64,000 nt of DNA, from positions 80,419-144,418 of the IMG/VR virus record IMGVR_UViG_3300030107_008258; one strand, given 5' to 3'. Made by a program: the position numbers and the translations under genes. Source of the stretch: a virus. The notes under the pieces were generated by a model, which was not told the DNA's origin, did not search any database, and saw nothing but the letters and a program-made list of their open reading frames with translations. Positions 23,055-58,790 of the stretch are shown here, one piece after another (position 1 is the stretch's first letter; each line of letters starts with the position of its first letter).

Positions 23055-26000
23055 TTAAATCCTTTTTTTCAATTCTTGAACCTCTTTATAGAGTTCTTTA
23101 AACCCGCCTAATAATACAGTCACTGCTCGACTATAATTTACACTGGAAGGATTACCTTTTTCGTCCTTCTCGACCAATTCCGGGAACAATTCCGCAAGTT
23201 CTTCCGCGATTAAACCGATTTCTTTTTTCTTATTTTCTTTTCTATTGTATTTTACTGGGCGGATTTTATTTATTATATCTAAGCTTGGAGTATAAGTTTC
23301 AACGTTTTCTTTTATAGCGATACTTGAAGTTTCAGTTAAGGTTCCTGTTACCGTAACGCCAGCTGATGTTGTAGCTATTTTAGTACTACCTTGATACAGT
23401 AAACTAGTAACTCCCGCTTGAGTCATGACTACGTGATAATAACTTGCCGTCCCTAATTTATAGGTCTCATCAGCCAAAACCAATACGCTACCCATAATTG
23501 TGGTAGTTCCCGGTTTATCTATAACAATACCAGACCTCGTACTTGCTGAAGTAAACCTTGCGTTATAATCGGACCCTCCGTTAACATGAAACAGTCTACT
23601 TGGATTAGTTATACCTATGCCGACATTACCTGTAGTCTTAGCAATCGTAAAAGGATCTTTAGTACTGGTAACATCCGTTATTCTAAAGCCATTTGTAAAG
23701 TCACAACTAATGTCGTAGACATAATTTGAGCTTGTAGAATCTTCAAGCCGAAGTGCCGCAGTTCCTCCGTACTTAATGTGAATTGGTTTAGCGGCGACAT
23801 TAGCCACTGACGAGTTACCAAACATTCCAGTCGTAGCCCTAGCTTGGCCATTTACTTCTAGTAAATTAGCGGCATTTGGAGAGACATTAATTCCCACTGA
23901 TGTTCCGTCATCAGTTATTTGAGAGTTCCCTATTGCACTCCCTCCTGTGAATTTAGCTACTTTGTTAGTGGAACCACTTCCGCTTATACTCCCAGCGCCG
24001 GGAGAAGCTTCCCACGCAATTCCTCCTGCGCCATCTGTTGTTAAAACATAACCATCAGTTCCGGCGCTGCCTCCTATCTTCATTTTAGAGGAAGCGATAT
24101 TTACTACTCCATCCCCAGTAATATCCAAAACTGCCCCACTAGAATTTTCAACGTAAAGTAAAGACTTAGTAGCGCTGCTAGTATTCATATAGGAGTGAAT
24201 TGCCTTATTAGTCCCGTATGCGGTTCCTACTACTTTAAGAGCAGCTGCGCCTGATTGGTCTGATGCTACTTGGTTAACTTGAAGCCTGCCTGCTGGATTA
24301 GTTACCCCTATACCGACATTACCCTCTTTATTAATAACCATCCTTTGCCGGATGCCATTAGTCGCAGCTCCAGCTGTGGCAAAAATTAATTCACCATCAA
24401 TCCAACTATCACCATCTCCTGTGCCTAATGGTGATCTAGTATAAATAGCTGCCGTCGCTGCCTTATAAGGACTAGATCCAGCTTCCCTTTTCGCGAAAAG
24501 AAGCATTGGGGAGAACCCGCCTGCGGTAGTGTCGTCATTATATAACACTAAACCGGGTTTTGTTGGGCCAGTCGCACCATTATCTGAAATGGTGATTAAC
24601 GCCCCGAAATCATCAGTATTAGTAACGTAAGGATCGTAGCTGGCATGAGACCCTGTACTAGCAATATAAATGTCATCATTACCATAACTGGCATTGATGG
24701 TATAGTTATTTCCTATTTGTAAGTTACCGGTGGGGTTATCTGTGCCGATGCCGACATTACCTGCAGAGGTAATACGCATATGCTCCGTGTTTGAAGTTAC
24801 AGCAAATCGGATATAATCATCATTCTTACATTGAATCGTCCAACTCCCCCCTGAATCTAAAAACCCTACGTTTCCATTTATGGCATATATATAACCATCT
24901 GTAGTGCCACCACTGTCCTCAAATTGTATTCCTGTCTCACTACCCGAACTTTTTATTTTAAGCGATGAATTCCAACCTCCGCCTACGATTTCTAACTTTG
25001 AATCTGGTGTAGTTGTTCCTATACCAACATTACCAGTAGAGACTATACGCATTGCTTCGTTAGGCCCACCGCCACCTGAAGTACCCAACTTAAATATAAT
25101 ATTACTATTCGCACCTAAATTAGCTGGATTCCCATTAGATATTAATTGTAAATCTGCGCCACCCACCACCTGACTATAAGTATAAGTAGAGCTACCTAAT
25201 GCGATAGCGCTGTTAACATGTATTTTGCTACCTGTATTAAGATCACTTGTCAGTCCCACTAATAACTCACCATCAGCATTTATTCGAGCTCGTTCAGTAG
25301 CATTTGTAATAAAATTTAACGTACTGGTAGTTGGTCGACTCATACCAGTGGTAGTATCGTTGGTGAAAGAAAAAGACGGAGCAGTCACAGCTCCTGAAAG
25401 AGACCGTATTTGCCCACCACTTTCTATAGTAGCTACCTGAGTACTCTCGTATCTTACGCTTAAAACAGTACCAGCTGAAGAATGACGCCCTAGTTCTAAA
25501 GCCGTAGTTTCGTCTGCTGCTATCTGCAATTGACCAGCGCTCTTATCAAATCCCATCCCAGTTTGATTACTAAAACCTGAAGCTATATTAAGAACAGTAT
25601 TACCAAAAAATACATCGTCGCGTAAGTATGCAGTTCCGTTAAGGTCTAGTAATTTACTTGGCGCAGTTATTCCTATACCAACACTTCCACCCCACGGACT
25701 TATTGCTATAGGTTTCTTGGGCGCTCTGTCTGCGCTAGTATCCCAAGCTTCCATGAAAGCGTAATCAGCATAAGTTCCGAACTGAAGTTCGCTATCTTCA
25801 CGAACAGATATTCTTCCTCTAACATCTAGTTTTGCACTATTGGCTGGAGCATTTGTCCCTATACCAACGTTAGCACCAACAATATGCATGGTTTCGGTAT
25901 CGGTGCCCGCCACCATAGTACTAAACGTTAAACGACCATCTTCTTCTGTATCAGTATTATCAACGATAAATGATTCGATAGAAGAATAACGAACGTTATT

Positions 26001-29000
26001 GCCCCCATCATCAGCCGCGTCAAAATATATGAAATTAGCACGACCAGCATCAGTAGCAAAGTCTGTCCTAAAAGTCATGCCCATTGCTCCAGTTCCATCA
26101 TTGTCGAAAAATAACTCTTGAGTAGAAGCTGAATCTGCATGTATATGGAAAATACTTGCGGGTGCATTTGTCCCTATACCGACACTACCCCCTTGAGTCA
26201 AAATCATTACCTCAGTAGCAGGGCTTCCATCGCCATCTAAACCAAAACCTAAATAAATTTTAGCATTAGCGCCGCCAGTATTATTTAATGATGAAATAGT
26301 TAAGCGCCCAGAGCTAGTAGAGTTATATCCAAAATATCCACCTAAAGAGGCGCTACTTCCTCCGGCCTGTAACGCTCCTTCAAAATTATCACTATCAGCT
26401 GCTTGGTAAATGTGAGCATTACGGTAAGGCGTAACGGTTCCTATGCCAACATTGCCGCCTCTAAAATATGAATTCCCGTTTGAATTTAAATTTACTTGTG
26501 TGCCGCCAGTATTGGAGCCGACCTGAAAAACACCGTCAGAGCCGTTGCTATAGACTCCAGCAATTAAATTCCCACTTGAGTTGTCCCATTCTTGAACATA
26601 AGCACTAGTCGCGGCAGCTTTAACATGAAGCGGACTGTCTGGCGCCGTATTCCCAATGCCAACTTTACCTCCGGAAGTCACTATCATTCTTACAGCACCA
26701 TTTGTTCCGAACTGTAAAGGATAATCCCCTGTCCCGGCTACTACCGTTGCGTAGGCTAACGCTCCCGTAACGGTTCCTCCCCCTGAGCTAGACTCTCTAT
26801 AAAAATAACTTGTTCCACCGGTATTGGCCGCTTGGAAACCTGTACGATTAGTCCCCGTGGTGGAACTAACAAATACATCTCCAGCAGCCTGTCTTATATC
26901 AAGCGAATAAGCCGGATCAGTTGTTCCTATACCAATTAAACCACCAACAGGATCAATGCACATTCTTTCTAAAGGTACATCGCTTGAGGTTAGCCCACTC
27001 CCACTTTTAGTTGAGAAAACTAAAAATGCTCGTTCAGACCCCGAAGTGTCATGCAGTCTTGTACCTATCCATGCTTGTGGATGATTATTCCAAGTTGTTG
27101 CTCCACCATTATTTAATAAATGATTAAACGCTATACCGGGGTAGTATGTATTAGCAGTAGTAGACCTAGTGTGCTCTGGCCCCATCATTATTCCCCATGT
27201 CCCAGTGCCGAGAGTTGTAGCTCCCGTGCTTGGACCTTGAGTTGTGAGCATACCCGGGGGAGCTTGAGTATATGCGTTGATGGAAATTAATTGTTTAGCA
27301 CCCGTGATTACAATATCTCCGGCATTAACATGAAGCTTTGCGCTGGGTGTAGTTATTCCTATACCAACGTTGCCGTCATACTGGATCGTCATACGCGAGT
27401 CTGCCAAGGTTGCGCTATTAGAACCGTTTTGAGCGTTGTTAAGGATGTGTATCTTCCCCCTAGCCGCGCCATCCTCTCTTTCAAATGCCAATATAGATTT
27501 TCGGTAATTGGCATTGTTCTCACGATAGCCAAAATGAATACCCTGCCATTTCCCAGCCGCAATTGTTCCTGCGAATGTTACATATTGACCATCTGTGGTT
27601 CCTGTATCTACTTCTAATACTTTTTGTGGATTATTCGTCCCTATTCCAATATCTCCATCATCATATATTACTGAGTCGCCAAGAGTATCCGAATCAACCC
27701 ACTTCGGTACATAATTAGCTGTTCCGTTTCCTCCTACGCCCGAAAGCACATCCTCAATCATCTTCCATTGAGGACCATCTTCTTTGCTTGTTAAAACATA
27801 ACCATCAACTCCTGTGGAGTTTGTTGAGTCATAAAGATAACCGCTGATTATGGCATCGCCAGCAACATGAAGTCTGTGCTCTGGTGATGTATTATTGATT
27901 CCGACATTACCATCTGTATTTATTAAAAACTGAGAGCTTCCACCTTTTTGTATTTGAAAATTATTGTCGCCGTTGCCTGCGAATGATCTATCTAGAATAA
28001 AGTTGTGGTTACCATCACTATCTGAATCTTGATCTGCTACTATTTTACAATTAAGGTCGTCTACATAAAATTCTATATCTTGAGCTGTATCTCTTCCAAC
28101 TACTAATCTAGCTCCATAACTAGGAGATGCTGTAGAGTCTAATATTCTAACTTGCCCACCGTAAACATGAAGATTCCCGACAGGAGCCGTTGTTCCTATA
28201 CCAACGTTACCATCAGTTAAAACAGTTATTTTATCACTAGTTCCCGGCACACCGCTAGTGTTGGAAATCTTAAAAGCTCCCGACTCCGACCTGTCAACCC
28301 CCACCGCCCAGTTGGTATTGTTGTCTCCAAACGAAATATAGGGATCATCATTCCCAGAAAAGAGACGTAGCTTTGTGGCTCCGCTGCTTTTAGTAATGGT
28401 AGTGTCCCCGGCGACCTCTAATTTTGCAGAAGGTGCATTTGTTCCTATACCTACATTACCGTCAGCCTTTATCCGCATATACTCCGTTAGAGTATCTCCA
28501 GAGCCGTTTGCTGAAGTAGAGAACGTAATTAAGCCGTCATCTGCTCCATCGGTAAGGGCTTTAATCGCAGCTATGGAATTTCCACTATTAGCAAATAGAA
28601 CTTGAGCCGTGTCATTTGCACTTGTCCTTTTACCTTCTAGTTTTAAAACAGCAGCATCATCATTTTTATCGTTATGAATATAAATCTGCGTATTACCTGC
28701 GCTTGAATCATCTTCGTAAACAGTTAATAAAGAAGCGGGATCGTTTGTTCCTATGCCAACATTACCGGCTTGATTAATTGAAATATTAGCGGCTCCTGCA
28801 CTGGTGAAAGTTAATGTATGATCTGTCCCACCTGTAACTTGAGTATCATTTTTAATTCTCCATTTTGTGGCGCCTGCCGCTTCCCATCTTAAGGTAACGT
28901 CAGTGGTTGCGCCGGAAGAGTTCAATGTAGCGTCGCCATAAACCTCAAGAAGATATTGAGGATCAGTTGTTCCTATACCCACCTTTCCATCAGCGGCAAT

Positions 29001-31301
29001 ACGAACTCTTTCCTCAGCAACTGCGCTTTGAGGACGAGTTACAAAAGCTAACCCAGCTCCGTAGTCACTCGACCCAACTTCCTTAACTGCGGCTATACCT
29101 GCGGCCGCATTCGCATGATAAGTTCCATTAAGTTCAAAAGCTAAACCAACTGCCGCATTCTGAGTATTGTTGGGGTTACGTACAATTAAGTCGTGCCATG
29201 TAGCGCCGTTGCTCGGGGCAAATGTCGTGCTACGAGATGGAGTAAGTACGTCTACTTTGCTATTAGGGGCACCTGATCCTATCCCTACATTGCCATCAGT
29301 TCTTTTTATAACCAATGCGTTAGTAACGTCGCTTGTATCTATAATAAATTTATTGTTAGCTCCATCGTATCTAAGGTCAACCCCTGTAGTTCCTCCAGCA
29401 TTTTCCCTATAACTTATCTTTCCAGAGTTTGCGCTATCAACAGTAACAGGACGAATTAAAATTGTGGGATCAGAATCGCTCACAACTTCTAATATTTCGG
29501 CGGGCGCATTTGTTCCTATACCAACATTCCCCACACTATTTAAAGTCACCTGCTGCGTTAGCGTTCCCCCTTCCATTGTCCATAACGCTAACTCACCATC
29601 CTCGCTTCCATCAGTTGAGTCTTTTATTTGACTTGTAATTGCGCCATATTCAACATCTTCTGGGGTTCCATTATCATTTTTCCCACGAAACCTAATGACA
29701 CCAATATAATCGTTATCTGCCGCAGACGTAGAACTACGATATAAAACTAGGTCAGGTGCGGTTGACCCTCCTGTTTCGCTGCTTTCAAGTATTAAATTGT
29801 TATTAAGATCTGAGCTAAGGATATGCAATTTACCAGCAGGTGAATTTGTTCCTATGCCAACATTACCGTCGCCAATAATACGCACTTTTTCTGAAGATGT
29901 ACCAGCATTGTCTGTGGAGAACGAAATGTAACCGGTATTGTTAGCTCCCGTAGTCCCCCCTTGAATCATTGCTACTCCACCGACATTATTTCCAAAAAGT
30001 ATTGTACCAACAATATCTGTGGTATTGTTATTGGCATGTTTTAAGAATATTTCCGCCCCTTCGTCATGCGCCCCATCACTTAAAAGTTGTAATAGCGCAG
30101 CTGGAGTATTTGTTCCTATACCGACATTACCGTTAGGCTTTACCACGAACCTATAAGTACCGTTGGCGTTCGCCCCTAAAATAATTCCAGTGCTTGAAGG
30201 GTTGTCTATACGGACCAAAAGGCCGCTATGATTACCTGTAGTCGCAGTGTTATAAATTCTTGAAAGCCAATCTCCCGTAATTGAAGCTTTAACTTCAAGT
30301 CTATAGGCAGGATCAGTTGTCCCTATGCCAACGTTGCCATCGCGCTTAATGACCATGTCGTCATTAGTGCCATCAGGTCTAAATGAAATATATTTTAAAT
30401 CACTATAACCTCCCTGTGCCCCTAGTACGAAATAATGGTTGGCGTGATCTAAAGCGAGAAAAGTTTTATTAGTATCATTATTGGCAAAATTAAGCTGAGT
30501 CCATGTATCGCCATCATTATCTAGTTTTAACTGATCCCCATTATCCCCAACTATATGAAGTTTGTTATCTGGATAAGCCGTACCTAATCCAAGGCTACCA
30601 GTAATATAAGAATCCCCATCCGAATGAAGTTGTATGGTTTGCGTTCCTCCATTTTTATAAGCCCGTATTAAAGCATCGTTAGAACTTTGACGCACATTAA
30701 ATAAAGCATCATTAGAACTATGAACTAAATTTAAAACATTAGTTCCGTCACCGGTAGACTTTACAGCAAGATTTCCGTCTGGAGCCATGTTTATCCCCAC
30801 GCCCCATAAACCGTTATCTTGACTCACTCCAGAAGTTAGAGTATCCTCATCAGACCAACGAGCTACATAATTAGCAACGCCGGAACCCCCAACGCCCGAA
30901 AGAACTGACTCAATATTTTTCCAATTAACACCAGTTGTTCCCTCGTTAGTGAGAACCATACCTCCATTACCTACGGAGTTGTTAGAATCATAAATGATTC
31001 CACTCATGGCAATAGTGTTAACTGAGAGCTTACTGCCATCAAAAGTTAAATTGGCATTAGCCCCGAAAACCCCATTATCATTAAACTGAACTTGGTGGTC
31101 AGCTCCCGCCGGATCAGTACTCCCGCCCCCTCCGCCACCCGCTACTTGAGCCCAGCCCGCGGCCCTTTTAACAAAGGTTTTAAGGTTACCAGTAGATACG
31201 TAGAAAGCGCCATCAAGTACTCCCGTTACTTGAGAGTCGAGGGCCGTAGTAGTATTAACATCTCCTACAAATCTATCTCCTGCGTATCTTGTGATTGCCA
31301 T
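23055..31301 (-). CDS. giant tail fibre, 2,748 residues, with S74 intramolecular chaperone/peptidase
   Basis: An 8.2-kb reading frame. After a short Gly-rich N-terminus (WAQVAGGGGGGSTDPAGADHQVQFNDNG), it repeats an ISGIxYDSNNSxGxxGxVLT / VLSGVGGxGxANYVxRWSDxDTL module and dozens of GNVGIGTTxPxxxLxV beta modules. The last 90 residues (SSIAIKENVETYTPSLDIINKIRPVKYNRKENKKKEIGLIAEELAELFPELV...) match Peptidase S74, the endosialidase-type intramolecular chaperone that helps trimerise fibres and then cuts itself off; SIAIKEN holds the candidate Ser/Lys pair. The long DNA repeats within the gene may recombine. Confidence 0.85.
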   Translation of the reverse strand: MAITRYAGDRFVGDVNTTTALDSQVTGVLDGAFYVSTGNLKTFVKRAAGWAQVAGGGGGGSTDPAGADHQVQFNDNGVFGANANLTFDGSKLSVNTIAMSGIIYDSNNSVGNGGMVLTNEGTTGVNWKNIESVLSGVGGSGVANYVARWSDEDTLTSGVSQDNGLWGVGINMAPDGNLAVKSTGDGTNVLNLVHSSNDALFNVRQSSNDALIRAYKNGGTQTIQLHSDGDSYITGSLGLGTAYPDNKLHIVGDNGDQLKLDNDGDTWTQLNFANNDTNKTFLALDHANHYFVLGAQGGYSDLKYISFRPDGTNDDMVIKRDGNVGIGTTDPAYRLEVKASITGDWLSRIYNTATTGNHSGLLVRIDNPSSTGIILGANANGTYRFVVKPNGNVGIGTNTPAALLQLLSDGAHDEGAEIFLKHANNNTTDIVGTILFGNNVGGVAMIQGGTTGANNTGYISFSTDNAGTSSEKVRIIGDGNVGIGTNSPAGKLHILSSDLNNNLILESSETGGSTAPDLVLYRSSTSAADNDYIGVIRFRGKNDNGTPEDVEYGAITSQIKDSTDGSEDGELALWTMEGGTLTQQVTLNSVGNVGIGTNAPAEILEVVSDSDPTILIRPVTVDSANSGKISYRENAGGTTGVDLRYDGANNKFIIDTSDVTNALVIKRTDGNVGIGSGAPNSKVDVLTPSRSTTFAPSNGATWHDLIVRNPNNTQNAAVGLAFELNGTYHANAAAGIAAVKEVGSSDYGAGLAFVTRPQSAVAEERVRIAADGKVGIGTTDPQYLLEVYGDATLNSSGATTDVTLRWEAAGATKWRIKNDTQVTGGTDHTLTFTSAGAANISINQAGNVGIGTNDPASLLTVYEDDSSAGNTQIYIHNDKNDDAAVLKLEGKRTSANDTAQVLFANSGNSIAAIKALTDGADDGLITFSTSANGSGDTLTEYMRIKADGNVGIGTNAPSAKLEVAGDTTITKSSGATKLRLFSGNDDPYISFGDNNTNWAVGVDRSESGAFKISNTSGVPGTSDKITVLTDGNVGIGTTAPVGNLHVYGGQVRILDSTASPSYGARLVVGRDTAQDIEFYVDDLNCKIVADQDSDSDGNHNFILDRSFAGNGDNNFQIQKGGSSQFLINTDGNVGINNTSPEHRLHVAGDAIISGYLYDSTNSTGVDGYVLTSKEDGPQWKMIEDVLSGVGGNGTANYVPKWVDSDTLGDSVIYDDGDIGIGTNNPQKVLEVDTGTTDGQYVTFAGTIAAGKWQGIHFGYRENNANYRKSILAFEREDGAARGKIHILNNAQNGSNSATLADSRMTIQYDGNVGIGITTPSAKLHVNAGDIVITGAKQLISINAYTQAPPGMLTTQGPSTGATTLGTGTWGIMMGPEHTRSTTANTYYPGIAFNHLLNNGGATTWNNHPQAWIGTRLHDTSGSERAFLVFSTKSGSGLTSSDVPLERMCIDPVGGLIGIGTTDPAYSLDIRQAAGDVFVSSTTGTNRTGFQAANTGGTSYFYRESSSGGGTVTGALAYATVVAGTGDYPLQFGTNGAVRMIVTSGGKVGIGNTAPDSPLHVKAAATSAYVQEWDNSSGNLIAGVYSNGSDGVFQVGSNTGGTQVNLNSNGNSYFRGGNVGIGTVTPYRNAHIYQAADSDNFEGALQAGGSSASLGGYFGYNSTSSGRLTISSLNNTGGANAKIYLGFGLDGDGSPATEVMILTQGGSVGIGTNAPASIFHIHADSASTQELFFDNDGTGAMGMTFRTDFATDAGRANFIYFDAADDGGNNVRYSSIESFIVDNTDTEEDGRLTFSTMVAGTDTETMHIVGANVGIGTNAPANSAKLDVRGRISVREDSELQFGTYADYAFMEAWDTSADRAPKKPIAISPWGGSVGIGITAPSKLLDLNGTAYLRDDVFFGNTVLNIASGFSNQTGMGFDKSAGQLQIAADETTALELGRHSSAGTVLSVRYESTQVATIESGGQIRSLSGAVTAPSFSFTNDTTTGMSRPTTSTLNFITNATERARINADGELLVGLTSDLNTGSKIHVNSAIALGSSTYTYSQVVGGADLQLISNGNPANLGANSNIIFKLGTSGGGGPNEAMRIVSTGNVGIGTTTPDSKLEIVGGGWNSSLKIKSSGSETGIQFEDSGGTTDGYIYAINGNVGFLDSGGSWTIQCKNDDYIRFAVTSNTEHMRITSAGNVGIGTDNPTGNLQIGNNYTINASYGNDDIYIASTGSHASYDPYVTNTDDFGALITISDNGATGPTKPGLVLYNDDTTAGGFSPMLLFAKREAGSSPYKAATAAIYTRSPLGTGDGDSWIDGELIFATAGAATNGIRQRMVINKEGNVGIGVTNPAGRLQVNQVASDQSGAAALKVVGTAYGTNKAIHSYMNTSSATKSLLYVENSSGAVLDITGDGVVNIASSKMKIGGSAGTDGYVLTTDGAGGIAWEASPGAGSISGSGSTNKVAKFTGGSAIGNSQITDDGTSVGINVSPNAANLLEVNGQARATTGMFGNSSVANVAAKPIHIKYGGTAALRLEDSTSSNYVYDISCDFTNGFRITDVTSTKDPFTIAKTTGNVGIGITNPSRLFHVNGGSDYNARFTSASTRSGIVIDKPGTTTIMGSVLVLADETYKLGTASYYHVVMTQAGVTSLLYQGSTKIATTSAGVTVTGTLTETSSIAIKENVETYTPSLDIINKIRPVKYNRKENKKKEIGLIAEELAELFPELVEKDEKGNPSSVNYSRAVTVLLGGFKELYKEVQELKKRI

Positions 31302-51643: not shown

Positions 51644-51686
51644 GAAAAATAAAAATAAAAAAAATGAAAAAAAATGACTTTTATGC

Positions 51687-51714
51687 TTGCGTTTTTCTGT
51701 GGCTGTGCTATACT
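51687..51714 (+). promoter_or_regulatory. early promoter cassette
   Basis: TTGCGT, 16 nt, TATACT, 10 nt, AGTT-ATGAGAGAT. The -35 is weaker than in other copies. Confidence 0.7.
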
Positions 51715-51724
51715 GTTTCCAGTT

Positions 51725-51871
51725 ATGAGAGATATGAACAACACAGATAAGGTTGAGCAGGGTTACGAGGAAGTTTGCACCGGATGCGGCGAAACGGTTT
51801 GCTTGTCAAAGGAAGAGCATGGTCAATGGGATCACGGGTTCGATGCGTTTATGTGCTGGGAATGCGAGTAA
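51725..51871 (+). CDS. 48-residue early zinc-ribbon protein
   Basis: From the ATG at 51725 (fixed by TATACT 10 nt upstream): MRDMNNTDKVEQGYEEVCTG, then CGETVC...FDAFMCWECE. The Cys pattern CxxC...CxxC suggests zinc binding. Probably an early regulatory or host-takeover protein. Confidence 0.55.
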   Translation: MRDMNNTDKVEQGYEEVCTGCGETVCLSKEEHGQWDHGFDAFMCWECE

Positions 51872-51875
51872 ACGC

Positions 51876-51903
51876 TTGACTTTCCTTTAAAATCTGATAA
51901 GAT
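51876..51903 (+). promoter_or_regulatory. early promoter cassette
   Basis: TTGACT, 16 nt, TAAGAT, 10 nt, CGTT-ATGAGAGAT. Begins 5 nt after the preceding stop. Confidence 0.75.
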
Positions 51904-51913
51904 AATTCCCGTT

Positions 51914-52147
51914 ATGAGAGATATGAAAACGTACACGTTGTACTGGAAGAATGAGGATACCAACAGGGTGAGCAGCAAAGACTTCACCAATGAATCTGGT
52001 GTTGACCATTCGGCAATGGACAAGGCTTTGGAGTTGGCCCAAGAAGCTGACACCAATATGTGGCCTTGGATACTGGAAGAGGACGGTTGCGAAATCGCCC
52101 ACGGTTGGGGTGGTGATATGTTGGGAGCCTACCGCTTTCAAGGTTAA
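51914..52147 (+). CDS. small early protein (MRDMKTYT...)
   Basis: A 77-residue acidic protein (LYWKNEDTNRVSSKDFTNESGVDHSAMDKALELAQEADTNMWPWILEEDGCEIAHGWGG). No known motif. Cassette start ATGAGAGATATG. Confidence 0.55.
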   Translation: MRDMKTYTLYWKNEDTNRVSSKDFTNESGVDHSAMDKALELAQEADTNMWPWILEEDGCEIAHGWGGDMLGAYRFQG

Positions 52148-52160
52148 AAAAATAATTTTA

Positions 52161-52189
52161 TTGACAAGTGGCTGAATTGGCCTTAGTTT
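52161..52189 (+). promoter_or_regulatory. sigma70-type promoter with a longer leader
   Basis: TTGACA, 17 nt, TAGTTT. About 40 nt separate the likely start of transcription from the ATG at 52237, unlike the near-leaderless neighbours. The leader contains a stem GGGGGGAAG / CTTCTCCCC. Confidence 0.5.
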
Positions 52190-52236
52190 AGAAGAAGAGG
52201 GGGGAAGCAAACCTTCTCCCCATTAACCCAAAATAA

Positions 52237-52806
52237 ATGAAACGGATGAAAAATCCACAAACACAAGATGATTGGGCTGCGACAAGAGCAGCGTTATCCA
52301 TCCTGCCGCAAGAGCAACACGCCGACTACTTGGCGATGCTCAACGACACCAAAACGAGAGCCAAGGGGATTATGGCCAAAGCCGTCACCCTTGAGGTCAA
52401 GCCCGATAAGGCAACCGGCAGCAAGGTTCAGGAAAAGGCCAACAAGGCCAAGTCCTCGACCAAAGCCAAGTCCTCCAGCAAGAGGGCTGCTGTCGTCCAG
52501 AAGAAGGCGAAGGTCAACGGGGCCTTCATTACCTTCCACCAGTACTCAATGCTCCAGACGGTGCGTGAGTTAGTGGCCAACGGCGTTAACGGTGCAGAGG
52601 GGCTATCCTCAAGCGAGATCGCCGAATACCGCGACTGCGGCGAGACGGGGAGCGAGGTCTCCACCGTCCTTGACCGCCTCAAGGCCTACCGCATCATCGA
52701 TTGGCGGCTAGTCGAGGTGAGCAAGAAGCCGGACGAAAGCCAAACTTGGCCAAGCCGGAACTTCCCTAGTTCCACCAAGCGGCGGGAATTCACCCTATTG
52801 GGCTGA
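52237..52806 (+). CDS. GC-rich early protein, possible winged helix
   Basis: A 189-residue protein, GC-rich compared with most neighbours. N-terminus: QTQDDWAATRAALSILPQEQHADYLAMLNDT. Middle: a basic AKSSTKAKSSSKRAAVVQKKAKVNG stretch. C-terminus: TFHQYSMLQTVRELVANGVNGAEGLSSSEIAEYRDCGETGSEVSTVLDRLKAYRIIDWRLV, which looks like a winged helix DNA-binding domain. It could be a transcription factor for the phage or host. The base composition suggests a different recent origin. Confidence 0.55.
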   Translation: MKRMKNPQTQDDWAATRAALSILPQEQHADYLAMLNDTKTRAKGIMAKAVTLEVKPDKATGSKVQEKANKAKSSTKAKSSSKRAAVVQKKAKVNGAFITFHQYSMLQTVRELVANGVNGAEGLSSSEIAEYRDCGETGSEVSTVLDRLKAYRIIDWRLVEVSKKPDESQTWPSRNFPSSTKRREFTLLG

Positions 52807-52814
52807 TCACTATA

Positions 52815-52843
52815 CCCCTCCCCCTTTGGGGGGAGGGATTTTG
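52815..52843 (+). terminator. terminator
   Basis: CCCTCCCCC / GGGGGGAGGG stem followed by ATTTTGA, directly after the gene at 52237-52806. Confidence 0.75.
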
Positions 52844-52848
52844 ATATC

Positions 52849-53385
52849 ATGGAAATTTATAGCTTCGACGAAGTAGAGGAAGGCCAGAATGCTGTCAAGA
52901 CGGCTATGGCTGAAGCCGGTTGCTTTGGGCCGGAAATGGAGAAACATTGTGCAGGTCAATCGCCAGAGAAGGATTTAATATCCTCGTTTATTCGATGGCG
53001 TAAAAAAATAACAACCATGCGAATGACGGTAACGGTCACGCAGGGACTAGGCAAGTACTTGGCTAACCTACTGAACAATGGGGATACTACCGGCATCCCG
53101 CCCAAGACTAAACCAAACATCAAGAAGGTGAATAAACCAGCTAATTGGCTGCGCCAGATGGAAGTTGAAGGCCTGTACAAACAATTCGGCGCGGATGACG
53201 TTGATGAAGTCATTGAACGCGTATTCAAGGCCTGTAAGGGCGGCGAGGTGGTCGATATCTCGGACGATGGTGAAAACATCGTCGAAACGGATCTCGACGG
53301 CTTAGACGTCAATCTAGACGTATTGGCGAGAAGCGAACAAATCCAAGCGTTCAATGTTCACTTTACCCCCAAGAAAAAAAGTTGA
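52849..53385 (+). CDS. unknown protein
   Basis: A 178-residue acidic protein (MEIYSFDEVEEGQNAVKTAM...). AGGGA before the ATG sits at the terminator base, so translation may depend on readthrough. An alternative start is MRMTVTVTQGLGKYLANLL at about 53017. The acidic C-terminus (VDISDDGENIVETDLDGLDVNLD) is notable. No known family. Confidence 0.45.
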   Translation: MEIYSFDEVEEGQNAVKTAMAEAGCFGPEMEKHCAGQSPEKDLISSFIRWRKKITTMRMTVTVTQGLGKYLANLLNNGDTTGIPPKTKPNIKKVNKPANWLRQMEVEGLYKQFGADDVDEVIERVFKACKGGEVVDISDDGENIVETDLDGLDVNLDVLARSEQIQAFNVHFTPKKKS

Positions 53386-53394
53386 AAATAGTTG

Positions 53395-53422
53395 TTGACT
53401 TTTCCTGAAATTCTGATATACT
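53395..53422 (+). promoter_or_regulatory. early promoter cassette
   Basis: TTGACT, 16 nt, TATACT, 10 nt, CGTT-ATGAGAGAT. A reference example of the cassette. Confidence 0.8.
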
Positions 53423-53432
53423 AGTTTCCGTT

Positions 53433-53615
53433 ATGAGAGATACGTTTGATAACTTAAGTTGTGAAGAGGTTTTTGAGTTGAACGCGGTTTGTGACCAGTG
53501 GCAGCAAGAGGCCATCAAGGCTCAAGAGGCTGAGCTTGCCGAGCGCAAGCGCAAGGCCGCTGCTGAAATGTTCTGGTTTATCCAAAAACGCCGCCAGCAA
53601 GGGGATTGGTTCTAA
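53433..53615 (+). CDS. small early protein, CEEVFELNA family
   Basis: A 60-residue helical protein: MRDTFDNLSCEEVFELNAVC, then DQWQQEAIKAQEAELAERKRKAAAEMFWFIQKRRQQ. It shares SCEExFELNAxCD with the gene at 55815 and TCEEVFEM with the gene at 56235. An early takeover role is inferred. Confidence 0.6.
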   Translation: MRDTFDNLSCEEVFELNAVCDQWQQEAIKAQEAELAERKRKAAAEMFWFIQKRRQQGDWF

Positions 53616-53632
53616 TAAAAAAAACCAAGTCG

Positions 53633-53709
53633 TAAGTCGTTGAACATCAATGACTTAGGCGCCCGGCGCCCCGCGCCGAAATCGTAAGTGCTTGATAATC
53701 AGTAACTTA
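53633..53709. repeat. paired-palindrome element, copy B
   Basis: Palindromes starting at 53633 and 53685, exactly 52 bp apart, around a core containing CGGCGCCCCGCGCC (C-rich orientation). It lies between the gene at 53433 and the promoter at 53821. Confidence 0.9.
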
Positions 53710-53736
53710 CGCATCCGTTTTTTAAAAAAAGTGATG

Positions 53737-53767
53737 TTTTAGGATAGGTTTCCGTGCCAACCTGTGC
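53737..53767 (+). repeat. GTGCCAA block, copy B
   Basis: TTTTAGGAT-GGTTTCCGTGCCAAC, nearly the same as after element A. Confidence 0.6.
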
Positions 53768-53820
53768 AAATTATTAAAAAAACTTTCTTGAATAAAAATA
53801 AAAAAAATGACTTTTTAGGG

Positions 53821-53848
53821 TTGACTTTTTCAGAGTTTATGCTATACT
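53821..53848 (+). promoter_or_regulatory. early promoter cassette
   Basis: TTGACT, 16 nt, TATACT, 10 nt, CGTT-ATGAGGGAT. Confidence 0.8.
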
Positions 53849-53858
53849 GTTTTCCGTT

Positions 53859-53981
53859 ATGAGGGATAAGATAGAAATGGAAGAGGTGTTCACCGAAAAT
53901 TGGGAACAGTTAATCGATGAGATCATGGGCGACATGGACATGGTCTGGAATGAAGAAGCTAAAAAATTCGAAATAAACTGA
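53859..53981 (+). CDS. 40-residue acidic early protein
   Basis: From the cassette ATG at 53859: MRDKIEMEEVFTENWEQLID followed by EIMGDMDMVWNEEAKKFEIN. Acidic helix, no known family. Its stop overlaps the next ATG (TGATG), so the two are coupled. Confidence 0.55.
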   Translation: MRDKIEMEEVFTENWEQLIDEIMGDMDMVWNEEAKKFEIN

Positions 53982-54145
53982 TGACAGACATAGAAAAAAA
54001 GATCCACAAGTTAAATGTGGATATCGTGCTGAACGGCCCGATCACCTGCCTTGACCCGATCAAGGATCATCGCCTGAAGGTTGCCAAGTTCAACATCGCC
54101 AAGCGGGAATTACTCGCAAAAGAATTTCAAAAAAGTGAGATTTAA
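53981..54145 (+). CDS. 54-residue early protein
   Basis: From ATG 53981: MTDIEKKIHKLNVDIVLNGP, then ITCLDPIKDHRLKVAKFNIAKRELLAKEF. The start overlaps the upstream stop; the 3' end runs into the next early promoter's upstream element (GTGAGATTTAAGG). Confidence 0.5.
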   Translation: MTDIEKKIHKLNVDIVLNGPITCLDPIKDHRLKVAKFNIAKRELLAKEFQKSEI

Positions 54146-54148
54146 GGG

Positions 54149-54177
54149 TTGACCTTGAGCGTAAAGTGTGATTTAAT
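54149..54177 (+). promoter_or_regulatory. early promoter cassette
   Basis: TTGACC, 17 nt, TTTAAT, 10 nt, AGTT-ATGAGGGAA. The upstream element overlaps the previous gene. Confidence 0.65.
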
Positions 54178-54187
54178 AAACGGAGTT

Positions 54188-54358
54188 ATGAGGGAAACCT
54201 TAAAAGAAAACAAAAAGTTGGTCTGCCAAGAGTGTGGTAGAGAGGACGGAGCCAAGAGCGATTGGGAAGGCTTCATCAGCGTATCGGAGTGGGGCAATGA
54301 GCATGACTTCGGAACGATCTGCGACGAGTGCCAAGAGGATCAAATTGATAGCCTTTAA
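54188..54358 (+). CDS. 56-residue zinc-ribbon early protein
   Basis: MRETLKENKKLVCQECGRED, then WEGFISVSEWGNEHDFGTICDECQEDQIDSL. CQECG...CDEC forms a zinc ribbon. Likely a small regulatory or RNA/DNA-binding protein. The start is fixed by TTTAAT 10 nt upstream. Confidence 0.55.
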   Translation: MRETLKENKKLVCQECGREDGAKSDWEGFISVSEWGNEHDFGTICDECQEDQIDSL

Positions 54359-54365
54359 AAAGGGC

Positions 54366-54393
54366 TTGACTTTTTCAAAAAATCTGATAGAAT
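54366..54393 (+). promoter_or_regulatory. early promoter cassette
   Basis: TTGACT, 16 nt, TAGAAT, 10 nt, TGTT-ATGAGAGAA. Confidence 0.75.
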
Positions 54394-54403
54394 AATTTTT
54401 GTT

Positions 54404-54706
54404 ATGAGAGAAACATATAAACACCCCGAAACCGGAGCCGCCATCTACTACGCCCCATGCGTAGACCACGAAGATGATGTTAGTAAAATCTGGCACGACT
54501 TTCGCGATTGCGAAACCAAAACTTATGCAAACCTGAGCATGGATTGGTCGCCTTACAGAGACCCATCAAAGAACGACATCAAGATGTGGTTCGCTCTTGG
54601 TTGCCCTGACCGCCGCACCATAGGAGACGGCAAAACGGTTGGCTCGCTCGATTCTGACAGACTCGTCGAGGCTCTTGGTAAACAACTTTGTATCGGAGGA
54701 TTCTAA
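54404..54706 (+). CDS. unknown early protein (MRETYKHP...)
   Basis: A 100-residue protein (PETGAAIYYAPCVDHEDDVSKIWHDFRDCETKTYANLSMDWSPYRDPSKNDIKMWFALGCPDRRTIGDGKTV). Not recognised. It precedes the lysin gene by 1 nt. Confidence 0.5.
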   Translation: MRETYKHPETGAAIYYAPCVDHEDDVSKIWHDFRDCETKTYANLSMDWSPYRDPSKNDIKMWFALGCPDRRTIGDGKTVGSLDSDRLVEALGKQLCIGGF

Positions 54707-54707
54707 T

Positions 54708-55163
54708 ATGAGAAAAATAATAATAACTTTCGCCGCTGCTGCTACTGCTTTAAGCCTTTATGCAAACACACACAAAAATCACACGCTTTCAAGGGAAACC
54801 AAGGTCATCGCAATTACTATACTGGCGGAAGCCAGAGGGGAAGGACACGCAGGAATGTACGCGGTGGGTGCTGTCATTGCTCAACGAGCATTTGAAAGAA
54901 AACAAACGCCCACAGAGGTATGCCTTAAAAAATGGCAATTTAGTTGTTGGAACGGAAAAAAACTCAAAGACCTTGAGCATTTGCTCAAGGGATCGCAAGC
55001 CAAATACGCAATAACAGTTGCGAAAAATGTGAAAACATTAAGCCGCGAATATGTTGGCTATGCTAACCACTACCACGCGACTTGGATGAAGAAAAAGCCT
55101 TACTGGGCAAAAGGTCAAAAGCCTGTTAAGACAATCGGGCAACACGTTTTTTATAAACTTTAA
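54708..55163 (+). CDS. secreted SleB/CwlJ-type cell-wall hydrolase
   Basis: A 151-residue protein with a Sec signal peptide (MRKIIITFAAAATALSLYAN) and a Hydrolase_2 (SleB/CwlJ) domain: ITILAEARGEGHAGMYAVGAVIAQRAF with the catalytic-type Glu41 and NHYHATWMKKKPYWAKGQKPVKTIGQHVFYKL at the C-terminus. It cuts peptidoglycan and is the likely endolysin of this phage. GGAGGA is 7 nt before the ATG, so unlike the cassette genes it is read from inside an operon. Confidence 0.8.
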   Translation: MRKIIITFAAAATALSLYANTHKNHTLSRETKVIAITILAEARGEGHAGMYAVGAVIAQRAFERKQTPTEVCLKKWQFSCWNGKKLKDLEHLLKGSQAKYAITVAKNVKTLSREYVGYANHYHATWMKKKPYWAKGQKPVKTIGQHVFYKL

Positions 55164-55182
55164 TCTTTCATCCTCATAACAC

Positions 55183-55228
55183 AGCCCCGTCGAGTTCTCT
55201 CTCTGCTCGGCGGGGCATTTTTCTTTTT
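55183..55228 (+). terminator. terminator after the hydrolase gene
   Basis: GCCCCG-CGAG / CTCG-CGGGGC stem followed by ATTTTTCTTTTTG. Confidence 0.8.
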
Positions 55229-55273
55229 GTCAAGTGAAAAAGATAAAAAAAAGTTTTTTAAAAAATAAAGTCG

Positions 55274-55350
55274 TAAGTGACTGATATTCAATGACTTACG
55301 GCAGCGGCGCCCTGCGCCCAAATCGTAAGTAACTGATATTCAATGACTTA
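55274..55350. repeat. paired-palindrome element, copy C
   Basis: Palindromes starting at 55274 and 55326, 52 bp apart; core contains CGGCGCCCTGCGCC (C-rich orientation). The left half-sites are TAAGTGACTGA and TAAGTAACTGA. Confidence 0.9.
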
Positions 55351-55380
55351 TGAACTCGTTTTTCTAAAAACTAAGACTTT

Positions 55381-55406
55381 TAAAAGGGATTCCATGCCAA
55401 GTAGTG
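55381..55406 (+). repeat. GTGCCAA block, diverged copy C
   Basis: AAGGGATTCCATGCCAAGTAG, a weaker version of the conserved block. Confidence 0.4.
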
Positions 55407-55449
55407 TAAAAAATAAAAATAAAAAAAATAAAAAAGTGAGTTTTTTCTG

Positions 55450-55478
55450 TTGACTTTTCCCGGAAAGTGTGGTTTAAT
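55450..55478 (+). promoter_or_regulatory. early promoter cassette
   Basis: TTGACT, 17 nt, TTTAAT, 10 nt, TGTT-ATGAGGGAT. Confidence 0.7.
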
Positions 55479-55488
55479 AATTTCTGTT

Positions 55489-55758
55489 ATGAGGGATATG
55501 TTTGATAATATGTACGAGGTTCGGATCGCCAACTCTGGCGATGTTGCTGGTTTCCCGCGTTCTCACGATGGTCTTGAAAAGGCCATCATGTTGGCCTCGC
55601 GTGAGGGTACTGAGGTCACCTTTGATGGTGATGTCGTCTGGCCGGAGGAGGAGCCGGATATGGATGAGTCCATGGACGGGGATCATGAGTCCGCCTTGGC
55701 CAGTGCCGGTTTCGGCACGGATGAGGATTACGGCTGCTACGGTGGCGATGAGTGGTAA
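55489..55758 (+). CDS. acidic early protein (MRDMFDN...)
   Basis: An 89-residue, highly acidic protein (NMYEVRIANSGDVAGFPRSHDGLEKAIMLASREGTEVTFDGDVVWPEEEPDMDESMDGDHESALASAGFGTDEDYG). It is GC-rich compared with most of the genome. Acidic DNA-mimic proteins are common among phage early proteins, but this is only a possibility here. Confidence 0.5.
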   Translation: MRDMFDNMYEVRIANSGDVAGFPRSHDGLEKAIMLASREGTEVTFDGDVVWPEEEPDMDESMDGDHESALASAGFGTDEDYGCYGGDEW

Positions 55759-55775
55759 AAAACTCATTTTTTTTG

Positions 55776-55804
55776 TTGACTTTTAAATCTGATTGTTTTA
55801 TACT
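55776..55804 (+). promoter_or_regulatory. early promoter cassette
   Basis: TTGACT, 17 nt, TATACT, 10 nt, TGTT-ATGGGAATT. Confidence 0.75.
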
Positions 55805-55814
55805 GTTTTTTGTT

Positions 55815-56009
55815 ATGGGAATTATGAAATCACTATTCATGGAACTCTCCTGCGAGGAGGAGTTTGAACTCAACGCGTGGTGCGACGAACGCCGTGAGGC
55901 CGACATCGCCGCGCAGGATCGCGACATGGTCGACGAGGAAATGGCCCGTCAGTCCGACGCGCAACTCGCCGAGGACGCCGCGTTGGATCTGTTGATCGCC
56001 GCCGGTTAA
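55815..56009 (+). CDS. small early protein, CEEVFELNA family (GC-rich member)
   Basis: A 64-residue protein: MGIMKSLFMELSCEEEFELN followed by AWCDERREADIAAQDRDMVDEEMARQSDAQLAEDAALDLL. It shares the SCEExFELNAxCD core with the gene at 53433. The DNA is unusually GC-rich. Followed by a terminator. Confidence 0.55.
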   Translation: MGIMKSLFMELSCEEEFELNAWCDERREADIAAQDRDMVDEEMARQSDAQLAEDAALDLLIAAG

Positions 56010-56026
56010 TCACGAACCGTGCCAAC

Positions 56027-56058
56027 CAACCCCGCCAAGGCGGGGTTTTTTTGTTTTT
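56027..56058 (+). terminator. terminator
   Basis: ACCCCGCC / GGCGGGGT stem followed by TTTTTTTGTTTTT. Confidence 0.85.
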
Positions 56059-56080
56059 AGTTTTTTAAAAAGTGAAGTCG

Positions 56081-56157
56081 TAAGTCGTTGGGTAGCAATG
56101 ACTTAAGGGCCGGGCGGGGGGCGCCGACCCCTTAACTTGTTGATTATCAATGACTTA
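56081..56157. repeat. paired-palindrome element, copy D
   Basis: Palindromes starting at 56081 and 56133, 52 bp apart; core contains GGGCGGGGGGCGCC (G-rich, reversed relative to copies A-C). Confidence 0.9.
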
Positions 56158-56196
56158 GGAATACAAAAAATAATTTAAAAAAGTGAGATTTAAAGG

Positions 56197-56224
56197 TTGA
56201 CATTTTCTGATTCTGTGGTATGCT
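56197..56224 (+). promoter_or_regulatory. early promoter cassette
   Basis: TTGACA, 16 nt, TATGCT, 10 nt, TGTT-ATGAGAGAT, with GTGAGATTTAAAG upstream. Confidence 0.7.
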
Positions 56225-56234
56225 CATTTCTGTT

Positions 56235-56402
56235 ATGAGAGATAATGTTACTTGTGAAGAGGTGTTCGAGATGGAGTCCGACGCATGGGTCGCTGATGTG
56301 ACCGTCGCCAACGGTTTCGACGATGTCGAGGTCGAGGAGGTCGAGGAGGTTTGCTGGTGCAAGTTTTTCGAGTCGTGCCCTGAATGTTTTGGCAAAAAAT
56401 AA
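56235..56402 (+). CDS. acidic early protein, CEEVFE family
   Basis: A 55-residue protein: MRDNVTCEEVFEMESDAWVA, then an acidic DVEVEEVEEV region and CWCKFFESCPEC at the end. It shares the CEEVFE start with the genes at 53433 and 55815 and ends in a CxC...CxxC pattern. Confidence 0.5.
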   Translation: MRDNVTCEEVFEMESDAWVADVTVANGFDDVEVEEVEEVCWCKFFESCPECFGKK

Positions 56403-56703: not shown

Positions 56704-56919
56704 CTAGGAGAGTATTTGTCGAATTTGACCTCTGTATTTATTTATCTCCGAAGCTGTCTCGCTATGGGAAGCGATGTTTCGTAAAGTCTCACGCGTTACG
56801 CTTTCGATCCGCCTTCTTAAAGTCTCTTTGACGGACTCCAAACTTTTAGCATCTTTTATTTTGATGCTGCGAGTTTTCTTTTTCTTCTCTGCCTTTTTCT
56901 TTAAATGTTTAGTTTTCAT
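56704..56919 (-). CDS. small basic helical protein
   Basis: A 71-residue, Lys-rich protein (MKTKHLKKKAEKKKKTRSIK..., then ESVKETLRRRIESVTRETLRNIASHSETASEINKYRGQIRQ). It begins about 11 nt downstream of the terminator of the large RNA, so it may be made by readthrough. Possibly nucleic-acid binding. Confidence 0.4.
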   Translation of the reverse strand: MKTKHLKKKAEKKKKTRSIKIKDAKSLESVKETLRRRIESVTRETLRNIASHSETASEINKYRGQIRQILS

Positions 56920-56929
56920 TATTTTAAAT

Positions 56930-57730
56930 TAAAAAATGGTGGTTGGATTAATTGTTTACCAACACCTTTTCAGTACCCAGAAAACAATGTTTCTATCTAC
57001 TTACTTCGGACTCCCCCACGGTTTTCCTCTGCCACTAGGCCGCTGTACTTCCCGCAGTTGCTGCGTTATCCCTTTGGGAGGGATTATTCCGCCACACCGA
57101 TCTCTCTCCGTCGAGAGAGAAAATTGATAGGTTGCTGCCGCACCACCAGCAGTAAAACGGGCGCGAGATCATCAAAACACAGAAAAACTCGCAGGGGTAT
57201 TTAACTCCGTCAACCTAAAAGAATCATTTTAAACGGATCACCCACACATTACAAACTATTAACGTCTTGTTGATCTTTTTCGTAAACAATGGTTAGGAGG
57301 CTTCTACTCCCAAGACTGATTTAATAATGCCCTGCTAGATTACTCTAACAAATCTAAAACAATTCAAATTGATCGCTTTTGAGAAACTTCTCATTCTTAA
57401 CCGTTTCAAGTCGAGTTAACGACTGTCATGCTTTCAACGCGTTTATAGCTCAGAAAGACGTGATTAAGTGCATGGCCCAAGTTTTTTGGTGTTATGAGAG
57501 AGAGTCCCTTTGCGGGACAGTCTTTAGACCGCAAAACTCAAAAGCAAATTTTCAAAGAGCATGGTCGCTTTTTACAGGTGCTACCTTAACTAGGGGGCTA
57601 CCCTAGACGCGACCAAAATTGTCAGGGGTTAACTAGCATTGTATTCCTACCCTAGTCTTTTAAGTCTGCCCTGCCAGACTACCTTACCCAAACACATGAA
57701 CGTATAACTTACAAACATTCCCCGAAGGGA
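56930..57730 (-). ncRNA. large structured orphan RNA, about 800 nt (GOLLD/ROOL-class candidate)
   Basis: A gene-free stretch read on the minus strand with its own early-type promoter (57737-57765) and a terminator hairpin (56938-56966) followed by a T tract. Within it are many stem-loops: TTCCC-CGAA-GGGAA near the 5' end, AGTCTG-CAGACT, CTAGGG-CCCTAG, GTCCC-GGGAC, TCTCTC-GAGAGA, CGCAG-CTGCG and ATCCC-GGGAT. Two segments share GCCCTGCYAG in a loop (around 57340 and 57670 on the plus strand). Size, lack of coding and closeness to a tRNA fit the large ornate phage RNAs GOLLD and ROOL, but I cannot test the consensus. Function unknown. Confidence 0.6.
56931..56966 (-). terminator. terminator of the large RNA
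   Basis: Minus-strand GGTGTTGG / CCAACCACC stem followed by ATTTTTTAATTT. Confidence 0.75.
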
Positions 57731-57736
57731 AAAACC

Positions 57737-57765
57737 AGTATATCAGCAACGGTCTGGCAATGCAA
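57737..57765 (-). promoter_or_regulatory. promoter of the large RNA
   Basis: TTGCAT, 17 nt, TATACT (same GCTGATATACT context as the early cassettes). The -35 and spacer lie inside the 3' end of the gene at 57743; the -10 starts across its stop. Confidence 0.7.
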
Positions 57766-58006
57766 CCTTTTTCTCAACTTTTTTTTGCTGATCTTCAATC
57801 AACTCTCCATCCTCCAAACAAGCATCCCAAGTCTTTTCCCAATCAAAAGAAAAATACTCATCAAATACCTTTGAAGCTATCCGACCCTCCATGCTTTGAG
57901 TCGCTGCTTCTTTCAGCATCGATCTCATAACTTTGAGTCTTTTCCGCATTTCTTCAGTTCCCGCTTTTGTTCGCGGCCTCAACCAATGGTCATCCATTTC
58001 TTTCAT
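57743..58006 (-). CDS. unknown helical early protein
   Basis: An 87-residue protein (MKEMDDHWLRPRTKAGTEEM, then RKRLKVMRSMLKEAATQSMEGRIASKVFDEYFSFDWEKTWDACLED). It follows the MREPKG gene with 1 nt between stop and start. The promoter of the large RNA lies in its 3' end. Confidence 0.45.
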   Translation of the reverse strand: MKEMDDHWLRPRTKAGTEEMRKRLKVMRSMLKEAATQSMEGRIASKVFDEYFSFDWEKTWDACLEDGELIEDQQKKVEKKVALPDRC

Positions 58007-58716: not shown

Positions 58717-58790
58717 TGGACGCGAGGGAGGGAGTCGAACCCTCAATTGTTCTTTTGCAGAGAACCGTCTTGCCGTTTGACCACCCCGCG
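58717..58790 (-). tRNA. tRNA-Cys (GCA), CCA encoded
   Basis: Complete cloverleaf: acceptor CGCGGGG / CCTCGCG (one G-T pair), D arm GTC / GAC with GG in the loop, anticodon stem GTTCT / AGAAC with loop CTGCAAA (anticodon GCA), 4-nt variable loop, T arm GAGGG-TTCGACT-CCCTC, discriminator T73 and encoded CCA. U73 is a known tRNA-Cys identity base. Its first 48 nt overlap the arfA-like gene's last 15 codons and stop. Confidence 0.9.

What the first reader, a model, noticed from the sequence alone, without database searches (positions are those of the whole stretch)
56930..57765. An 800-nt orphan RNA with its own promoter and terminator
A gene-free 0.8-kb stretch has a TTGCAT-17-TATACT promoter on the minus strand, many stem-loops, two related GCCCTGCYAG loop modules and a hairpin-plus-T-tract terminator. 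It is about 1 kb from a tRNA gene. Large phage RNAs of this size (GOLLD, ROOL) often lie near tRNAs, and some are reported to form multimeric cages. If it matches neither, it is a new class.
Basis: partly seen in the sequence, partly recalled or inferred. Interest (0 to 1): 0.85.

Follow-up and report, generated by a model that had tools for sequence, protein, structure and literature searches.

The report
Phage RNA chain ending in manA
A 0.8-kb gene-free stretch of a virus genome encodes not one giant RNA but a string of separately folding RNA units behind one promoter; related phages add, drop and reorder the units, and the last one is a divergent relative of the known but unexplained manA RNA.

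Summary
A structured RNA is really there, on the minus strand, but it is neither a single orphan RNA nor GOLLD or ROOL. Its last 183 nt (56938-57120, unit M) are a divergent relative of manA RNA (RF01745): full-length match, E 2e-11, below Rfam's cut-off, bridged by relatives that pass it. Upstream lie further self-closed units, A (57621-57680), D, E, G and B (57129-57216), mostly joined by AAUUU linkers. About 18 other uncultivated phages carry these units in different combinations: M alone, A-B-M, A-E-B-M, A-M-B. Compensatory changes support M (14 of 43 pairs), B (8 of 19) and A (7 of 20, including a pseudoknot). None of the units but M matches Rfam.

Most likely mechanism: one transcript folds as beads, is perhaps cut at the AAUUU linkers, and ends in a manA-type leader of the downstream gene. 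The architecture is well supported; cutting and function are inferred.

The parts
57737..57765 (-). promoter TTGCAT-17-TATACT, overlapping the end of the 87-aa ORF
   Evidence: aligned TTGACA / TAnnnT in five relatives, TTGCAT in L028
57716..57734 (-). short hairpin with UUCG loop at the expected 5' end of the transcript
   Evidence: sequence; similar hairpin in L028, L029, L040
57621..57680 (-). unit A: hairpin with CAGGG loop, second hairpin with GGAA loop, pseudoknot CAGGG/CCCUG
   Evidence: 7 sequences, 99.3% of cells paired, 7 of 20 pairs changed on both sides; model R3 finds 12 loci
57563..57614 (-). unit D, closed by GGUCGC/GCGACC
   Evidence: folds with z -3.1; one relative, L041; weakly tested
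57375..57545 (-). unit E, closed by GCUUUUGAG/CUCAAAAGC
   Evidence: compensatory closing stem in L028, L038, L042; z -2.7
57221..57365 (-). unit G, closed by a long A/U-rich stem, with the second CAGGG
   Evidence: z -3.2; no relative found, covariation untested
57129..57216 (-). unit B, closed by AGGUUG/CAACCU, with hairpin loop UGGUGGUGCG
   Evidence: 7 sequences, all cells paired, 8 of 19 pairs changed on both sides; model R2 finds 14 loci
57121..57128 (-). linker with AAUUU before unit M
   Evidence: AAUUU directly before M in all or nearly all of 17 loci; 32 of 38 junctions overall, 5.4 expected from shuffles
   Evidence: RF01745 49.7 bits, E 2.1e-11; 14 of 43 pairs changed on both sides; reciprocal hits to cyanophage manA
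56704..56919 (-). 71-aa basic protein (pI 10.7, KTKH family) starting 18 nt after M; probably in the same transcript
   Evidence: homologues behind M in most relatives; two helices predicted

Best explanation
The region is a promoter-driven chain of separately folding RNA units (A, D, E, G, B, M) on the minus strand, reshuffled among related phages. The last unit, M, is a divergent manA-type RNA that runs directly into a small basic-protein gene. Shown by sequence comparison: the strand, the promoter, the self-closed folds of M, B and A, the modular reshuffling and the relationship to manA. Inferred: the chain is one transcript; the single-stranded AAUUU linkers let a host endonuclease of RNase E type (motif RN|WUU) release or mature single units; M acts in cis as leader of the gene behind it, setting its mRNA stability or translation, while the upstream units are co-transcribed small structured RNAs that protect the 5' end or act in trans.
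For: manA match in the window and in six relatives; L055/L056 above cut-off and L081 at 103 bits; reciprocal model R1. Covariation of M, B and A. Unit orders differ between phages. Promoter aligned in relatives, and directly before M in L033, L034, L039, L049, L072. An ORF starts about 8-20 nt after M in 12 of 17 loci, and 46 of 64 canonical manA copies stand before an ORF. AAUUU in 32 of 38 junctions; RNase E motif RN|WUU from PMC5222698.
Against: No transcript data. The manA score is below Rfam's cut-off and the central GUGGUG hairpin is absent. L054, L055, L056 and L060 have M without an ORF behind it, and some cyanophages have manA inside tRNA arrays, which a pure leader role does not explain. 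AAUUU may be only an unpaired spacer, and the junctions share ancestry. D and G are supported by folding energy and at most one relative.
Confidence: 0.6

Rival explanations
1. Trans-acting RNA operon: all units, M included, are excised from the chain and act as stable small RNAs (for example binding ribosomes, nucleases or host regulators); the downstream gene is merely co-transcribed.
For: manA between tRNAs with 0-1 nt spacing in S-CREM1, also in RN05-S and L081; M followed by an intrinsic terminator and no gene in L055/L056; M followed by unit B in L054/L060; AAUUU at most junctions.
Against: Most canonical manA copies stand before an ORF and only 4 of 64 lie next to a tRNA; M and the KTKH gene stay together while the upstream neighbours change.
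Confidence: 0.25
2. Pure riboswitch-like control: M switches between its closing stem and an extended P8 hairpin followed by the T-tract (attenuation), and the upstream units are further sensors.
For: In the close group the 3' CACC can pair with the 5' GGUG (P2) or with the GGU before P8, and a T-tract follows; manA was proposed as a riboswitch candidate (PMC2864571).
Against: The competing GGU is lost in L054-L057 while P2 is kept; no ligand or common pathway among the downstream genes (gp32, transaldolase, small basic protein).
Confidence: 0.08
3. A single large RNA of GOLLD/ROOL type that assembles into a cage.
For: Size, phage origin, a tRNA within 1 kb, a more variable 5' part and a conserved 3' part.
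Against: No Rfam match to either at the thresholds used; units reordered or absent in relatives; M alone with its own promoter in five phages.
Confidence: 0.03
4. Chance folding or non-functional intergenic DNA.
For: The whole region folds only modestly better than shuffles (z -2.3).
Against: Strong two-sided covariation in three units with slid-partner controls and a conserved promoter.
Confidence: 0.01

Closest known systems
manA RNA (Rfam RF01745; Weinberg et al. 2010, PMC2864571)
   Same: P1 hairpin with GACG loop, closing stem, GAAUAA motif, 3' hairpin; full-length match to the model; marine phages; position before an ORF
   Different: Window scores 49.7 bits against a cut-off of 55.2; the central GUGGUG hairpin is missing; it is the last unit of a chain of other folded RNAs
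GOLLD RNA and ROOL RNA (PMC12286853)
   Same: Length of about 0.8 kb, phage, a tRNA nearby, conserved 3' part
   Different: No sequence or structure match; separate self-closed units whose order and presence vary
wcaG RNA (RF01761)
   Same: Cyanophage RNA found near manA (L081, S-CREM1); contains a UGGUGCGG string like the loop of unit B
   Different: No Rfam match to wcaG in the window; the shared letters are a resemblance only
Phage tRNA arrays
   Same: Several folded RNAs in a row with short linkers; some manA copies are members of such arrays
   Different: The units here are not tRNAs, and a common AAUUU linker takes the place of tRNA-type ends

Membership tests
manA RNA (RF01745) | bit score at or above the gathering cut-off (55.2) | tested here: not met
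   49.7 bits, E 2.1e-11; relatives L055 56.3 and L056 58.4 pass
manA RNA (RF01745) | P1 hairpin with GACG loop, GAAUAA motif and 3' hairpin with two-sided changes shared with cyanophage manA | tested here: met
manA RNA (RF01745) | long closing stem between 5' and 3' parts | tested here: inconclusive
   GGUG/CACC present in all 19 sequences but never varies
manA RNA (RF01745) | central hairpin with conserved GUGGUG loop | tested here: not met
   absent from the core of the window and its close relatives
manA RNA (RF01745) | position in the 5' leader of a gene | tested here: met
   ORF starts 18 nt downstream; 46 of 64 canonical copies before an ORF; transcript itself not shown
GOLLD and ROOL | match to the family covariance model | tested here: not met
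   no match at gathering level or at E up to 10
GOLLD and ROOL | one conserved overall secondary structure | tested here: not met
   units are added, lost and reordered between relatives
GOLLD and ROOL | homo-oligomeric RNA cage | not testable with these tools
   needs cryo-EM; the modular reshuffling argues against a fixed cage fold

The most novel reading that the evidence does not exclude
Marine phages carry a previously unrecognised modular RNA operon: a string of independently folding, exchangeable structured RNAs (A, B, C, E, manA and others) joined by AAUUU cutting sites and released as separate trans-acting RNAs during infection; manA is one bead of this system rather than a stand-alone riboswitch.
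Probability: 0.3. Interest if true: 0.85.

Novelty: new variant of a known kind. Interest (0 to 1): 0.6.

Why it matters
manA has been an unexplained riboswitch candidate since 2010. Here a divergent form is tied to a set of covarying RNA units that phages recombine like cassettes, and none of those other units matches Rfam. This gives a concrete way to ask what manA does: the same unit can be studied alone with its own promoter, inside a chain, before a terminator, inside a tRNA array, or as a gene leader. It also shows how a composite RNA can look like a single giant RNA when only one genome is read.

Tried and rejected
GOLLD and ROOL (no match). Coding sequence in the region (non-triplet indels between relatives). 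The hairpin plus T-tract as terminator. Relatives in annotated phage genomes: blastn of the region and of units M, A, B and C found nothing useful in INPHARED. A core M pattern in 84,980 bacterial and archaeal genomes: none. The idea that manA is mainly a tRNA-array RNA was weakened by my own survey: 4 of 64 next to a tRNA, 46 of 64 before an ORF. The lack of a Shine-Dalgarno sequence as a special feature of the downstream gene was dropped, because only 10 of 34 genes in the window have one. Pairing of unit A's CAGGG loop with unit B's CCCCUG was dropped: A's loop changes to CUGGG while B stays the same, and the real partner inside A covaries. Pairing of B's loop UGGUGGY with M's 3' end GCCACCA is possible but untested, since both strands barely vary. 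A first bracket string for unit A was wrongly placed and replaced. A fold search with the KTKH protein model was not run because the model is only two helices with pTM 0.51.

Full report
What was checked. The window is the right-hand 64 kb of a 144,418-base virus record. The region 56930-57765 holds no convincing gene; it lies between an 87-aa ORF (57743-58006) and a 71-aa ORF (56704-56919), both on the minus strand. A tRNA-Cys gene is at 58717-58790. No Rfam family other than tRNA passes its cut-off in the window.

The 3' end is manA-like. With an E-value search, 56932-57118 minus matches manA over the full model (1-192) at 49.7 bits, E 2.1e-11, below the cut-off of 55.2. Related contigs were fetched with the neighbouring proteins and with conserved DNA patterns. 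The homologous stretch in L002 and L004-L008 matches manA at 38-46 bits. Two relatives, L055 and L056, pass the cut-off (56.3 and 58.4 bits), and a cyanophage-like contig, L081, scores 103. A covariance model built only from the window's close group (R1) finds L055, L056 and L054 at 1e-26 or better, L081 at 2e-6 and the annotated manA of Synechococcus phage S-CREM1 (L089) at 3e-5. The homology is therefore supported in both directions. The central GUGGUG hairpin of manA is missing, so I call unit M a divergent relative and not a plain member.

Structure of unit M. In 13 sequences, 43 pairs form in 97.9% of cells, against 41-50% when the partner is slid, and 14 pairs change on both sides. Across 19 sequences that include cyanophage manAs, 756 of 775 cells pair, on an alignment fitted to the model. 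P1, the two-pair RC/GY, P3, P4, P6 and P8 all show two-sided changes. The closing stem GGUG/CACC never varies in these sequences, so it rests on the Rfam model alone. A fixed U-G pair (columns 68 and 109 of A2) would be A-C on the other strand, which supports the minus strand as the RNA strand.

Upstream units. Just upstream, unit B is closed by AGGUUG/CAACCU (GAGUUG/CAACUC and AAGUUG/CAACUU in relatives) and holds a hairpin with the loop UGGUGGYGCG. All cells pair in 7 sequences and 8 of 19 pairs change on both sides. Unit A has a hairpin whose CAGGG loop pairs with a downstream CCCUG (CUGGG with CCCAG in others), and 7 of 20 pairs change on both sides. Unit E is closed by CUUGAG/CUCAAG with compensatory changes in four sequences and folds with z -2.7; D and G fold with z about -3.1 but have one relative and none. 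None of these units has a credible Rfam match in the window.

The units are modular. Orders seen: window A-D-E-G-B-M; L028 A-E-B-M; L029, L037, L055, L056 and L057 A-B-M; L038 A-C-E-B-M; L040 A-B-C-M; L041 A-D-B-M; L042 A-E-B-M; L054 A-M-B; L082 C-B-C without M. M occurs without the other units in L031, L033, L034, L039, L049 and L072. In five of these (all but L031) a TTGACA-17 promoter stands directly before it, and in L049 the gene upstream is RecA-like. Each searched uncultivated-virus record has one M, except that of L082 with none. Junctions carry AAUUU in 32 of 38 cases against 5.4 expected from shuffled letters, though many junctions share ancestry and the linker ends were placed by hand.

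Promoter and terminator. It is not listed by the scan, and in L054 and L060 unit B follows it. In L055 and L056 a proper intrinsic terminator lies some 70 nt further on and no gene follows directly.

Downstream gene. In 12 of 17 loci an ORF begins about 8-20 nt after M. It is usually a small basic protein (pI about 10) with a KTKH motif, predicted as two helices (pLDDT 85, pTM 0.51), without Pfam or PHROG match. L042 and L038 have other ORFs in that place. The ORF lacks a Shine-Dalgarno sequence, but so do most genes of this phage that were checked.

What manA does elsewhere. Among 64 canonical manA copies with both flanks in virus contigs, 46 have an ORF start within 80 nt and 4 lie within 30 nt of a tRNA (the manA ends were estimated from the closing stem). 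Genes behind manA include a gp32 single-strand DNA-binding protein and a transaldolase. In S-CREM1 manA sits between tRNA-Leu and tRNA-Asn with 0-1 nt spacing; RN05-S and L081 also have it inside tRNA arrays. The published view is a cis-regulatory candidate of unknown function (PMC2864571; PMC9964418). No paper found gave a tested function.

Reading. The best-supported picture is a promoter-driven chain of small RNA folds ending in a manA-type leader. Cutting at AAUUU fits the RNase E motif RN|WUU (PMC5222698), but the host and its enzymes are unknown and no transcript data exist. Whether M works in cis or in trans cannot be settled from sequence. I favour a cis role for M because of its position, and leave the roles of A, B, D, E and G open between 5'-end protection and trans-acting RNAs. 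The confidence of 0.6 refers to the whole statement including mechanism; for the architecture alone (modular chain, promoter, manA relationship) I would put about 0.9.

Noticed in passing
window 51507/51559, 53631/53683, 55272/55324, 56079/56131, 56406/56458, 59451: Pairs of 29-bp inverted-repeat-like sites (CGTAAGT..TTGATNATCAATGACTTACG) spaced exactly 52 bp apart in intergenic cassettes with a G+C-rich centre; they look like paired operator or binding sites.
   Followed up: no
window 51678-56245, seven copies: Repeated promoter-plus-start cassette TTGACtttt..TATACT..CCGTTATGAGAGA in front of many small genes that begin with MRD.
   Followed up: no
L040, L082, L112-L114, L117, L118, L128, L132, L137, L151, L154, L158, L160, L161, L164: Unit C (closing stem, GGUACANA, hairpin CUGC-UAUUAAGAU-GCAG, UUGAUCGCC) recurs in many other virus contigs, sometimes in tandem with AUUUAAUUU linkers and sometimes right before a start codon; no Rfam match and no INPHARED match.
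   Followed up: partly
L089 1979-2193, L091 near 2001-2152, L081 10404-10614: Canonical manA embedded in cyanophage tRNA arrays with 0-1 nt spacing to the neighbouring tRNAs in S-CREM1, which a purely cis-regulatory role does not explain.
   Followed up: partly
L168-L247: Canonical manA copies in virus contigs often stand before phage gp32 (single-strand DNA-binding protein) and transaldolase genes.
   Followed up: partly
window 2864-11026, 18387-23054, 23055-31301: Three giant repetitive ORFs (2720, 1555 and 2748 aa) with many VGIGT-type repeats, probably tail fibre or adhesin proteins by eye.
   Followed up: no
window, 34 genes checked: Only 10 of 34 genes have a Shine-Dalgarno-like sequence, a hint at a host that uses it little.
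   Followed up: no
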